Positions 1 to 58,726 of a DNA stretch of 64,000 nucleotides are shown piece after piece. Position numbers and translations under genes: made by a program. The stretch is taken from contig NZ_CP029639.1 of assembly GCF_003268635.1 (NCBI RefSeq), positions 2,801,501 through 2,865,500 on the forward strand, in the 5' to 3' direction. Positions within the stretch are counted from its first letter, which is position 1; the number at the start of each line of letters is the position of its first letter. This stretch comes from Paenibacillus sp. DCT19. GTDB lineage: Bacteria > Bacillota > Bacilli > Paenibacillales > Paenibacillaceae. The notes beneath the pieces were generated by a model. The model was not told the origin of the DNA and did no database searches. It worked only from the letters and a program-made list of their open reading frames with translations.

Positions 1-1496
1 AAAATTCAACTGCCCTTGCAAACGGCAAGTCTTGTTCTTGGCTTTATGGTATGGGTGATTCTCTCGTCACTCATGCCTTTCATCAAAGAAGATATCGCAC
101 TTTCATCTTCACAGCTGGCTTGGGCGACTGCCATTCCGGTATTAATCGGTTCGATTGCTCGTATTCCGATTGGGTACTGGACGAACCGCTACGGGCACGT
201 AACATTTTCATGATCAGCTTTGTGTTATTGCTTGCTCCGGTATGGTGGGTTAGTCGTGCAACATCATTCAGTGATCTCGTTATTGGCGGATTTTTCCTCG
301 GAATCGGTGGCGCTGTATTCTCTGTCGGTGTAACATCACTGCCGAAGTATTATCCCAAAGAACGTCATGGTTTTGTAAACGGGATATATGGAATTGGTAA
401 CCTTGGAACGGCGTTATCTGCATTCGGAGCACCGTTGATTGCCGATCGTATGGGATGGTCTACAACGGTATTGCTATATAGTATTTTGTTACTCGGGATG
501 GCTGCACTGAATTTTGTTCTCGGGGACAAGAAGGAAACACGTGTTAATGTTCCGCTGATGCAGCAGTTAAAGGCCGTATCGCGAAACAATAAACTGTGGC
601 TGCTATGTTTGTTCTATTTTTTAACGTTTGGTTCATTCGTTGCATTTACAGTATATCTGCCCAACTTCTTGGTTACTAACTTCCAGATGGACAAAGTAGA
701 TGCAGGTATTCGTACCGCAGGCTTCATTCTGGTTGCAACGATTATGCGACCTGTGGGTGGCTGGCTTGGTGACAAGTTTAATCCGTTCAAAATATTAATG
801 TTTGTGTTCGGCGGATTAACTATTGCTGCGATCGTATTATCGTTTGCACCTTCATTCTACATTTATACAGTTGGGTGTCTGACTGTCGCGCTCTGCGCGG
901 GTACAGGTAACGGTACAATTTTCAAATTAGTGCCAATGTATTTCGTCAAACAAGCAGGTATCGCTAACGGGATGATCTCGGCTATGGGTGGTTTGGGCGG
1001 TTTCTTCCCTCCATTAATGCTGACGCTGCTGTACAGTATGACAGGTCATTACGCGATTGGATTCATGGCGTTATCCCAGATTGCACTGGTAAGTCTCGTG
1101 CTCGTCATCTGGATGTTCTATCAAGAGAAACTTCAATTGTCTTCTAGCATTCTGGAGAATACCATTGAAGCGATCCTGGTGACAGATACGAACAGTGTTA
1201 TTCGTTCTGTGAACCCAGCCTTTACGGCGGTTACAGGTTACACAGCTGAAGAAGCGGTGGGACAGAAGCCAAGCATGCTGAAATCAGGCAAGCAGGATAA
1301 GAAGTTCTATGATCAGTTGTGGCAGGAACTGCGTGAAAAAGGATACTGGCAGGGCGAGATCTGGAACCGTAAGAAAAACGGTGAGGTTTATCAGGAATGG
1401 CTTAGTATTACAGCAATCCGTAATGAAGCTGGAGAAGTCAAATATTACGCGGGTATGTTCAGTGACATGAGTAAACCCGATCTAACGATTGCCTAA
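1..1496 (+). CDS. narK: NarK-type nitrate/nitrite MFS transporter with C-terminal PAS domain (5' partial, frameshifted)
   Basis: Membrane transporter of the NNP branch of the major facilitator superfamily, which moves nitrate and nitrite. The frame is open from base 1, so only a few N-terminal codons lie outside. The N-terminal part shows the family's conserved start (GFMVWVILSSLMPFIKED) and the glycine-rich helix GNGTIFKLVPMYFV typical of the nitrate signature. After the last membrane segment (about base 1120) a PAS domain of about 110 residues follows (SSILENTIEAILVTDTN, then NPAFTAVTGYTAEEAVG). Most NarK proteins end after helix 12, so this is a fusion. The frame breaks at the GGG of 193-195; adding one G restores NRYGARN and a 498-codon frame. 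YwiC and Crp/Fnr genes next door match the Bacillus narK-fnr-ywiC order. The family call is firm; the ligand sensed by the PAS domain is unknown. Confidence 0.9.
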   Translation, partial: NSTALANGKSCSWLYGMGDSLVTHAFHQRRYRTFIFTAGLGDCHSGINRFDCSYSDWVLDEPLRARNIFMISFVLLLAPVWWVSRATSFSDLVIGGFFLGIGGAVFSVGVTSLPKYYPKERHGFVNGIYGIGNLGTALSAFGAPLIADRMGWSTTVLLYSILLLGMAALNFVLGDKKETRVNVPLMQQLKAVSRNNKLWLLCLFYFLTFGSFVAFTVYLPNFLVTNFQMDKVDAGIRTAGFILVATIMRPVGGWLGDKFNPFKILMFVFGGLTIAAIVLSFAPSFYIYTVGCLTVALCAGTGNGTIFKLVPMYFVKQAGIANGMISAMGGLGGFFPPLMLTLLYSMTGHYAIGFMALSQIALVSLVLVIWMFYQEKLQLSSSILENTIEAILVTDTNSVIRSVNPAFTAVTGYTAEEAVGQKPSMLKSGKQDKKFYDQLWQELREKGYWQGEIWNRKKNGEVYQEWLSITAIRNEAGEVKYYAGMFSDMSKPDLTIA

Positions 1497-1547
1497 GCGA
1501 TTCATGTAAACAGAACAGTTATTGAAAAAGTGATCCAACATACAGCA

Positions 1548-1588
1548 AGAGACCTTAACTTGATTTACAGTAGTTAAGGTCTCTTTTT
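1548..1588 (+). terminator. Rho-independent terminator after narK
   Basis: A 13-bp stem (AGAGACCTTAACT pairing with AGTTAAGGTCTCT) with an 11-base loop is followed by T residues. It lies about 50 bases after the narK stop. Confidence 0.85.
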
Positions 1589-1671
1589 GCACAAGCGATA
1601 GTTCAATACACAGAGGATGTGATTAACATTCCTGATGAATGTGGCTCAACGCTGAGCTGTCATTGTGAATA

Positions 1672-1811
1672 ACAGAAAGAACAAGTTAGAAGCAGGGAGC
1701 AGGCTGTAAGAAACAAATTAGTAGCAAATAGCAAGCAGCAAGTAGTAAGAAACAAGAAGTAGCAAGCCACAAACAGCAAGAAGCAGCAAGATGCAGGAAG
1801 CAGTCTTGCTG
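1672..1811. repeat. Degenerate AGCAAG/AGTAGCAAG low-complexity repeat
   Basis: Short imperfect repeats of the type AGCAAGNAGCA, AGTAAGAAACA and AGCAGCAAG fill the space between the convergent narK and Crp genes. No open frame of note crosses it. The end at 1784-1811 forms a hairpin (CAGCAAGA with TCTTGCTG) that could be a weak terminator for the minus-strand Crp gene. Its function is otherwise unclear. Confidence 0.6.
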
Positions 1812-1817
1812 TTATGC

Positions 1818-56560: not shown

Positions 56561-56589
56561 GGATTGTAACTGTTCAATCAGGCAATTCC
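56561..56589 (+). promoter_or_regulatory. RAT 5, orphan antiterminator target
   Basis: GGATTGTAACTG, loop, then CAGGCAATTCC, 29 nt. No licT gene and no clear RAT-overlapping terminator follow; only about 80 bases separate it from RAT 6. It is probably the remnant leader of a lost licT gene. Confidence 0.75.
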
Positions 56590-56670
56590 GACCAACCTTG
56601 GTCAGTGAAGATTGATCGCAACTTACTTTAGTTATTAAGATAACTAAATACCAATGTGTACAGCCTTACA

Positions 56671-56696
56671 GGGTTGCAACCGTTAAGGGCAAAACC
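56671..56696 (+). promoter_or_regulatory. RAT 6, short variant before PTS 3
   Basis: GGGTTGCAACC, a five-base loop, then GGGCAAAACC. Nearly identical to RAT 4, so the same LicT probably reads both. Confidence 0.82.
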
Positions 56697-56767
56697 TGAA
56701 TTGCTGAATAACACGACTTATTTCCGGATGATCCGGTACGTTGTGTATGTTCAGTAGTTCAGGTTTT
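56691..56767 (+). terminator. RAT-linked terminator before PTS 3
   Basis: AAAACCTGAA pairs with TTCAGGTTTT at 56758-56767, and T-rich sequence follows. The stem shares AAAACC with RAT 6. Confidence 0.8.
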
Positions 56768-56814
56768 CTTTGTTTCAAAGGCATGGATGAGACACACTTA
56801 GAGGGGGAAATACA

Positions 56815-58726
56815 ATGAGTAACTACGATCAATTGGCCAAGGATATTCTGTCACGTGTAGGTGGTCCTGAGAATGTTAACAGCGTGTTCCATTGCGTAAC
56901 AAGATTGCGGTTTAAACTGAAAAATGAAAGCGTAGCCAAAACGGAAGAACTTAAAAATCTACCAGGTGTTATTACCGTAATGCAGAGTGGTGGACAGTAT
57001 CAAGTAGTTATCGGTAATGAAGTGCCGGATGTATATAAAGCCGTAGTAAAAGCAGGAAATTTGTCTGCTGAAGGTCAGGTCGATGAGAATGATGCAGACT
57101 CTGGTCCTAAAGGAAATTTGTTTAACCGTTTTGTAGATATGATCTCAGGGGTATTCACTCCAGTGCTCGGCTTGCTAGCAGCGACTGGGATGATCAAAGG
57201 TTTCACAGCTATGTTCGTAGCGTTGGATGGATTAATAATACTGAAGGTACGTATGCATTGCTGAATGCAGTGGGAGATTGCTTATTTTACTTCTTCCCGA
57301 TCTTCCTTGGATACACAGCAATTAAAAAATTTGGTGGAAGCCCATTCCTAGGTATGGCGATTGGAGCATCGCTGGTATATCCGACGCTTGCGGGAATTCG
57401 CGCTGGAGAACCGTTGTATACATTGTTTGCAGGAACCTTATTTGAATCACCGATTCGAATTGAGTTTCTAGGTATACCGGTTATCTTGATGGATTATGCT
57501 TCATCCGTTATTCCGATCATCATTGCAACATTCTTTGCAGTCAAAATTGAAAGATTCTTTAAAAAGATTATGCCTAAAGTAGTCAGCAATTTTTTGGTTC
57601 CTTTCTGCACATTGCTAGTTATCGTACCACTTACGTTCTTGGTCATTGGCCCGGTTGCTACATGGGCAGGTCAACTGTTGGGTGCATTCACATCTTCGAT
57701 TTACGGCTTGAGTCCACTGCTTACAGGTATCGTGATTGGTGGTTTATGGCAAGTGTTCGTTTTGTTCGGACTTCACTGGGGACTTGTTCCATTAGTATTC
57801 GTTAACCTGGCAACTCTTGGATATGACTCGATTCTGGCCTTGTCTTTCGCAGCATCATTTGCTCAAACAGGAGCCGTGCTTGCAGTAACGCTCAAAACGA
57901 AAAACGCGAAGTATAAAACGCTGGGCGCACCGGCAGTGATATCAGGTATTTTTGGGTAACTGAACCAGCCATTTATGGTATCTCGCTCCCATTGAAAAAA
58001 CCATTCATTATGAGCTGTATAGCTGCAGCAATTGGTGGCGGTATTCTCGGCTTTGTTGGAACAAAAGGATACATTATCGGCGGACTTGGTATTTTCGGAT
58101 TCCCAAGCTATATCAACCCTGAGGGAGGAATGGATTCTGTATTCTTCTGGACGGTTGCCGCTACAATTATCGCATTTATGCTAGGCTTCATTCTGACTTA
58201 TGTTGTAGGCTTCAAAGAGCCAGCAGAAAAAGTGGCTGCTCCAGCACCAGTACTTGATCCAAACCCAAACAGCAGATATGAAATCATGAGCCCAATGGCT
58301 GGTGAAATCGTTCAACTGAAAGAAATCAATGATGTAACGTTTGCAGGAGAGCACATGGGTAAAGGGATTGCAATTCGTCCAACGAGTGGTAGAGTGGTGT
58401 CTCCAATTACAGGTACAGTACAAACGGTGTATCGGACTAAACATGCGATTGGTCTTGTAACTGATGATGGTGTAGAGATGCTCATCCATATCGGACAGGA
58501 TACAGTACAACTGAAAGGGCAACATTTCACAGCACATGTGAAGGATGGAGATCGCGTTAATGTAGGTGATCTGATTATGGAATTCGATCTGCAAGCGATT
58601 AAGGATGCAGGATATGAGATTGTGACACCTATTATCATCACAAACACTTCAAGCTATCTGGATGTTGTAGGAACCAAAGAAGCATCTGTTCAAGAAAAAG
58701 ATAAATTGATCACTGTACTAAATTAA
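56815..58726 (+). CDS. PTS beta-glucoside transporter IIBCA 3 (two frameshifts)
   Basis: A 637-residue IIBCA permease after repair, close to PTS 2. The IIB Cys is in HCVTRLRFKL; the IIA His in LIHIGQDTVQLKGQHF. Breaks are at the GG of 57225-57226 (repair gives ALGWINNTEGTYALLNA, matching PTS 2) and the GGG of 57954-57956 (repair gives SGIFGVTEPAIYG). Each needs one added G. It is read from RAT 6 and lies in one unit with the following glycosidase. ATG 56815 follows AGAGGGGG. Confidence 0.92.

What the first reader, a model, noticed from the sequence alone, without database searches (positions are those of the whole stretch)
193..57956. Fifteen single-base frame breaks, nearly all in G/C runs, across 13 genes
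Breaks at 193, 19518, 21459, 24472, 26040, 26783, 38098, 44338, 45371, 47810, 49865, 50180, 51595, 57225 and 57954 are each repaired by adding one base (G in thirteen, C in one, A or G in one). In every repaired gene the frame length becomes divisible by three and regains the family length (gnd 472, the GH1 enzyme 487, PTS 637 residues). Pathway genes such as gnd and licT are hit, and neighbours of similar age are intact, so this is a run-length undercall in sequencing or assembly, not decay. The base-run bias toward four G residues read as three is a recognisable signature. Downstream gene calls from this contig would be wrong.
Basis: partly seen in the sequence, partly recalled or inferred. 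Interest (0 to 1): 0.75.

Follow-up and report, generated by a model that had tools for sequence, protein, structure and literature searches.

The report
Sequencing undercalls break many genes
Roughly one gene in six looks broken in the stretches compared of this soil-type bacterium's deposited genome, almost certainly because runs of the same letter, mostly G or C, were recorded one letter short, so the breaks are an ordinary sequencing artefact and not biology.

Summary
In detail: all 15 breaks in 13 genes are one-base deletions relative to both of two colinear relatives, Paenibacillus sp. Root52 and P. tundrae DS1314. One site is misplaced: 24472 is really a T run at 24439-24443. Eleven of 15 lie within 3 nt of a G/C run of three or more, against 12.7% of random gene positions.

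In 400 kb around it, 58 of 288 assessed genes are broken; 64 of 65 breaks shift the frame by -1 mod 3. Runs of five G are short in 20 of 98 cases, the reverse in 1 of 83. In the other replichore C runs are hit (C5: 8 of 54), so 'thirteen G' only reflects gene orientation. The single-copy ribosomal protein L2 gene is broken the same way, which a living cell should not survive. Protein identity after breaks is like that before them.

This is a genome-wide, mainly G/C, homopolymer undercall, perhaps 1,000 sites (rough). No reads were seen. The A-run site in gnd and the T-run site could be real mutations.

The parts
1..1496 (+). NarK-like MFS transporter with C-terminal PAS domain; frame break at 193-195 (G run one shorter than in both relatives). 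Gene starts just outside the window.
18542..19570 (+). Serine hydrolase of the PF00144 (beta-lactamase fold) family; frame break at 19518-19521, near the C-terminus (nt 991 of 1041 in relatives).
   Evidence: end inferred from the relatives' gene length
21006..23341 (+). FtsX-like permease (778 aa in relatives); frame break at about 21459-21461 (G run).
24159..24817 (+). TetR-family regulator (217/212 aa in relatives); frame break at 24439-24443 in a T run, not at 24472 as first reported.
24831..26155 (+). MFS H+ antiporter-type transporter (441 aa in relatives); frame break at 26040-26043 (G run).
   Evidence: end inferred from the relatives' gene length
26294..27366 (+). Ankyrin-repeat protein (357 aa in relatives); frame break at 26783-26785 (G run).
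37156..38573 (+). gnd, 6-phosphogluconate dehydrogenase (472 aa in relatives); frame break at 38098-38102, an A run of 5 where both relatives have 6. A second intact gnd lies elsewhere in the genome.
43330..44792 (+). GH1 6-phospho-beta-glucosidase (487 aa in relatives); frame break at 44338-44340 (G run). A 487-aa database protein matches the two pieces at 98.8% and 99.3%.
44915..45480 (+). NT5C-type nucleotidase-like protein (188 aa in relatives); frame break at 45371-45373 (C run).
   Evidence: end inferred from the relatives' gene length
46602..49312 (+). Alpha-L-rhamnosidase (903/908 aa in relatives); frame break at 47810-47812 (short G run next to a substituted site).
49488..50580 (+). 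Acyltransferase_3 family protein (386 aa in relatives); two frame breaks, at about 49863 and 50180-50183.
51447..52357 (+). licT, BglG-family antiterminator (303-aa ORF in relatives); frame break at 51595-51598 (G run).
56815..58726 (+). Beta-glucoside PTS EIIABC (637 aa in relatives); two frame breaks, at about 57221-57226 and 57954-57956.

Best explanation
Most of the breaks are base-calling or consensus errors, not mutations in the organism. The chromosome is one contig starting at dnaA, made from reads that under-count homopolymers, G/C ones above all, and apparently not fully corrected with accurate short reads. Runs of four or more G or C were written one base short with a probability that rises with length: about 1-3% at four, 17% at five (30 of 177 G5 and C5 pooled), more at six. 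Each shortened run inside a gene shifts the frame by one. Shown: excess of one-base deletions, length dependence, like rates for G and C, spread over the stretches sampled, open genes in relatives, preserved constraint, hit on rplB. Inferred: that the true DNA carries the longer runs, and that the platform was a long-read one; which one is open.
For: 1. 15 of 15 sites are one-base deletions versus both relatives.
2. Root52 proteins against 400 kb of own genome: 58 of 288 assessed genes broken (38 of 326 not assessable), 65 breaks, 64 with net shift -1 mod 3. 63 of 65 trace to a single 1-nt deletion; 46 of those 63 touch a G/C run >=3, against 9.1% of random gene positions.
3. Run lengths over 462 kb: G3 8/1915, G4 7/397, G5 20/98, G6 4/5 shorter in own; Root52 shorter given own length: 0/1913, 1/410, 1/83, 1/3.
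4. Other replichore (187 kb): C4 2/175, C5 8/54, C6 3/11, G5 1/8; 19 of 145 assessed genes broken, 17 of 20 breaks -1 mod 3. Pooled G5 21/106 and C5 9/71 do not differ (p 0.31).
5. rplB (ribosomal protein L2): frames change at codon 33-35; one L2 match in each of 8 genomes searched; open frame 248 aa here, 282 in the other seven. Also broken: carA, pyrF, addB, spoIIP, sbcD, mutL, metH, radA, disA, rlmB.
6. Amino-acid identity to Root52 is 93.4% upstream and 94.1% downstream of 51 single breaks, 95.2% in 230 intact genes.
7. A 487-aa protein, listed on an 18.8-kb contig, matches the two GH1 pieces at 98.8% and 99.3%; its source is not shown.
8. Precedent, passages read: PMC4888979 reports 561 single-base homopolymer deletions in a PacBio consensus of a 2.9-Mb chromosome and plasmids, found with Illumina reads; PMC8812927 names homopolymer indels as the main residual error of long-read-only assemblies.
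Against: No reads were seen. Cruder counts are less one-sided: along DNA alignments, own has 90 one-base deletions and 22 insertions in Root52 ORFs (control pair 9 and 4), and P. tundrae proteins give 19 of 22 breaks of class -1. One search also flags 26 nonsense codons in 20 of 304 genes (3 in 3 of 87 in the control), 17 of the 26 in genes with frame-shifting indels, and N/S is a little higher in broken than intact genes (0.236 against 0.187; control 0.356 against 0.234). In the stricter test 17 aligned pieces hold a stop: 9 in the first ~70 residues, 2 in the last 18, 6 at or past a break; I did not resolve whether the first nine are wrong starts. Most other core genes checked are intact: rpoB, rpoC and most ribosomal proteins, the synthetases compared, dnaA, gyrA, gyrB; this is weak evidence, since only three G/C runs >=5 lie in + strand genes of the core transcription/translation stretch (none shortened). 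Of the 63 single-deletion breaks, 13 have an A/T run as the longest neighbour and 4 only one or two G/C, so not all follow the G/C rule.
Confidence: 0.95

Rival explanations
1. Real gene decay: the strain is losing dispensable genes, and the breaks are genuine pseudogene mutations.
For: The control pair also shows a few broken genes. gnd and GH1 have a second copy in the genome or window. flags nonsense codons in 20 of 304 genes, and N/S is slightly higher in broken genes.
Against: Decay gives insertions and lost constraint. Here 64 of 65 breaks are of class -1, in runs whose length sets the rate, and downstream identity is like upstream. No stop in the stricter test lay in mid-gene before a break. 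rplB, carA, pyrF and metH are hit.
Confidence: 0.02
2. A genuine mutator: mismatch repair is lost (mutL is itself broken), and homopolymer indels have accumulated in the living strain.
For: The mutL frame is broken; MutS2-type and a third MutS-like gene also have shorter open frames than in relatives. mutS is open at full length.
Against: Repair-deficient strains gain and lose bases (recalled). Here, in runs of 4-7 G or C, 52 are shorter and 3 longer in own (summed). rplB could not be lost. The mutL break is of the same type as the rest, so it is more likely another error.
Confidence: 0.02
3. A minority of the sites, chiefly the two A/T-run sites (gnd at 38098 and the TetR-type gene at 24439), are genuine mutations among many artefacts.
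For: Runs of this kind change about equally in both directions (A6: own shorter 2/93, Root52 shorter 2/91; T5: 4/263 and 3/267). gnd has an intact second copy at 89% DNA identity.
Against: Both differ from both relatives in the direction of the artefacts. Longer T runs do show an excess of shortening (T6-T8 13 of 125), so A/T undercalls occur in this assembly.
Confidence: 0.3
4. Programmed frameshifting or transcriptional slippage at G runs lets the genes be expressed despite the breaks.
For: Many breaks lie in G runs.
Against: Orthologues in relatives are in one frame. Runs of three or four G are short for known slippage sites (recalled), and the sites span unrelated genes, including rplB.
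Confidence: 0.005

Closest known systems
Single-base homopolymer deletions in PacBio bacterial consensus (e.g. Enterococcus faecium ATCC 700221, PMC4888979; passages read)
   Same: One-base deletions in homopolymers, hundreds per genome (561 in a 2.9-Mb chromosome plus plasmids there; about 107-181 gene breaks per Mb aligned here).
   Different: There Illumina reads exposed them and over 90% were removed; here no reads are available and the sequence appears uncorrected. The base preference is not given in the passages I read.
Gene-fragmenting errors in Nanopore assemblies (Kastor, PMC12007338, passages read; Homopolish, PMC8011154, passages read)
   Same: Deletion errors after homopolymers, most often four to five long; fewer than 2,000 indel errors and 1,101 frameshift-only pseudogenes in the Kastor example before correction.
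   Different: In the Kastor example A/T runs dominate; here G/C runs do, with a weaker effect on long T or A runs.

Membership tests
Long-read consensus homopolymer undercall | Deletions greatly outnumber insertions | tested here: met
   64 of 65 breaks of class -1, 17 of 20 in the other replichore; G/C runs of 4-7: 52 shorter, 3 longer; cruder DNA count 90 deletions to 22 insertions
Long-read consensus homopolymer undercall | Error probability rises with run length | tested here: met
   G3 0.4%, G4 1.8%, G5 20%, G6 4/5; C4 1.1%, C5 15%, C6 27%
Long-read consensus homopolymer undercall | Like rates on both strands (G and C) | tested here: met
   G5 21/106 and C5 9/71, p 0.31; the first replichore alone looked G-biased
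Long-read consensus homopolymer undercall | Indifferent to gene function | tested here: inconclusive
   rplB is hit and noncoding runs are short too, but other essential genes checked are intact and hold few long runs
Long-read consensus homopolymer undercall | Raw or accurate reads carry the longer run | not testable with these tools
   No reads held
Pseudogene decay | Relaxed constraint after the break | tested here: not met
   Identity 93.4% before, 94.1% after 51 breaks
Pseudogene decay | Nonsense mutations accompany frameshifts | tested here: inconclusive
   Crude count 26 nonsense codons in 20 of 304 genes; stricter test: none in mid-gene before a break, nine near gene starts unresolved
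Mismatch-repair mutator | Indels of both signs (recalled) | tested here: not met
   52 shorter, 3 longer in G/C runs of 4-7

The most novel reading that the evidence does not exclude
The strain is a natural mismatch-repair-deficient lineage whose G/C runs really contracted throughout the chromosome, and which survives with broken frames, including rplB, through an unknown form of slippage or frame rescue.
Probability: 0.01. Interest if true: 0.85.

Novelty: not a real feature. Interest (0 to 1): 0.07.

Why it matters
It matters as quality control. About a fifth of the genes assessed near the window (58 of 288) and 13% in the other replichore sample (19 of 145) are split by frameshifts that are mostly false. 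Protein calls, pseudogene counts, pathway absence calls and gene-loss inferences from this genome are unreliable, although its completeness is listed as 99.98.

Tried and rejected
G-only or strand-linked process: in the window-side replichore the breaks at G/C runs looked strongly G-biased, also in minus-strand genes (43 G, 3 C). I tested the other replichore; C runs are hit there at a like rate, so I dropped it.

Mutator reading: looked at mutS-type genes and mutL. mutL is broken, mutS open; rejected on direction of change and on rplB.

Gnd as proof of artefact: rejected, because a second intact copy exists.

A/T runs as fully spared: dropped on recount. T6-T8 are shorter in own in 13 of 125, longer in 2; in the other replichore A6-A8 are shorter in 4 of 61, longer in 1, and T6-T8 shorter in 0 of 67, longer in 4. 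So the platform is left open.

Strain identity and platform from papers: searches for the contig length and for '6.67 Mb' with Paenibacillus gave nothing relevant; a search for G-and-C homopolymer wording gave nothing. The answers to searches were seen as listings only.

Extra 400 kb: GC skew stays positive throughout, so it does not cross the terminus; stretches aligned in reverse orientation (83.7 kb) were left out of the run table.

Filters: the strict test finds 10 of 51 assessed window genes broken, not 13, because it misses genes with short end pieces or low coverage. The 17-to-1 count replaces the looser '15 versus 0' entered. In the reverse test, 12 of 309 own ORFs are flagged against Root52, 10 in the direction 'own shorter' and 2 the other way.
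Full report
What the window is. It is G000:C1:2801501-2865500 of a single 6,667,063-base contig. The contig begins with dnaA. The best-matching named relatives found are Paenibacillus tundrae DS1314 and Paenibacillus sp. Root52, both colinear with the window, about 86-94% identical over the main aligned blocks. The genome itself is unnamed to me.

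Checking the observation. I aligned the window to both relatives and listed the indels. All 15 sites are one-base deletions in the window against both relatives, in 13 genes. Site 38098 in gnd is an A run. Eleven of 15 sites have a G/C run >=3 within 3 nt, against 12.65% of random gene positions. One search shows a few other shared frame-changing differences near ORF ends or in a doubtful ORF, and one shared 1-nt insertion.

Is the window special? No. I tested Root52 proteins of 120 aa or more against the 400 kb of own genome around the window. Of 326, 288 could be assessed; 58 are broken, by 65 breaks, 64 of class -1 mod 3 and one of class +1. P. tundrae proteins give 19 of 83 broken, 19 of 22 breaks of class -1. 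Between the two relatives the same test flags 4 of 84 and 2 of 81 assessed genes. Of the 65 breaks, 63 trace to one single-base deletion; 46 of these 63 touch a G/C run >=3 in the own sequence, against 9.1% of random gene positions. The others sit at A/T runs (13) or at one or two G/C (4). One-base deletions occur along the whole stretch: 19 of 20 bins of 20 kb hold at least two. A cruder count along DNA alignments gives 90 one-base deletions and 22 insertions in Root52 ORFs, against 9 and 4 in the control pair.

Run-length signature. Over 462 kb aligned in the same orientation, the own run is one shorter than Root52's in 8/1915 G3, 7/397 G4, 20/98 G5 and 4/5 G6 runs; Root52 is shorter given own length in 0/1913, 1/410, 1/83 and 1/3. 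A5 is 5/330 and T5 4/263, with 2/327 and 3/267 the other way; T6-T8 show an excess (13 of 125 shorter, 2 longer). In the opposite replichore (own 4.45-4.65 Mb), where C runs dominate the + strand, C4 is 2/175, C5 8/54, C6 3/11 and G5 1/8, A6-A8 are 4 of 61, and 19 of 145 assessed genes are broken. Pooled G5 and C5 rates do not differ (21/106 and 9/71, p 0.31). The G excess in the window thus comes from gene orientation.

Why this is mostly not biology. First, rplB (ribosomal protein L2) is broken: Root52's L2 matches the own sequence in one frame to residue 35 and in another from residue 33. Each of 8 genomes searched has one L2 match; the open frame is 248 aa here and 282 aa in the other seven. 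L2 is essential where it has been tested (recalled). Second, other core genes are hit: carA, pyrF, addB, spoIIP, sbcD, mutL, metH, radA, disA, rlmB. Third, protein identity to Root52 is 93.4% upstream and 94.1% downstream of 51 single breaks and 95.2% in 230 intact genes, so selection still reads the sequence after the break. Fourth, a 487-aa GH1 protein, listed on an 18.8-kb contig, matches the two window pieces at 98.8% and 99.3%; its source is not shown.

Results that cut the other way. flags 26 nonsense codons in 20 of 304 genes (control 3 in 3 of 87), 17 of them in genes with frame-shifting indels, where misalignment and doubtful ORFs are likely; N/S is 0.236 in broken and 0.187 in intact genes (control 0.356 and 0.234). 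In the stricter test 17 aligned pieces hold a stop: 9 within about the first 70 residues, 2 in the last 18, 6 at or past a break; the nine were not resolved. Many essential genes are intact: rpoB, rpoC and most ribosomal protein genes, synthetases of two families, dnaA, gyrA and gyrB. In the core transcription/translation stretch only three G/C runs >=5 lie in + strand genes, none shortened, so little loss was expected there. mutL is broken and two other MutS-type genes look short, which would suit a mutator, but in G/C runs of 4-7 the changes are 52 losses and 3 gains. Gnd has an intact second copy, so its A-run break could be real.

Comparison with what is known. PMC4888979 (passages read) reports 561 single-base homopolymer deletions in a PacBio consensus of a 2.9-Mb chromosome and plasmids, exposed by Illumina reads. 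Kastor (PMC12007338, passages) and Homopolish (PMC8011154, passages) describe like errors in Nanopore assemblies; in the Kastor example A/T runs dominate, unlike here. Polypolish (PMC8812927, passages) names homopolymer indels as the main residual error of long-read-only assemblies. Which platform was used here is open.

Scale. Eighty-five breaks in about 547 kb of aligned sequence would mean roughly 1,000 in the genome; this assumes the sampled stretches are typical.

Verdict. I give no list of corrections.

Noticed in passing
window 54550-56455: About 1.9 kb absent from both relatives holds a group II intron-type reverse transcriptase/maturase ORF (55111-56385, RVT_1 and GIIM domains); one full copy found in this genome, between two PTS genes.
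   Followed up: partly
G000:C1:4393709-4395114: A second, intact gnd gene, 89% identical in DNA to the broken window copy; several relatives also carry two copies.
   Followed up: partly
G000:C1:1983031 and 5030212 regions: MutS2-type and a third MutS-like gene have shorter open frames (595 and 384 aa) than in relatives (799; 706 and 684), each with a one-base deletion, consistent with the same undercall.
   Followed up: partly
window 44903-44908 and 62279-62283: G runs in front of genes are also one shorter than in relatives (44903: both; 62279: Root52 only), so noncoding runs are affected too.
   Followed up: no
   Followed up: no
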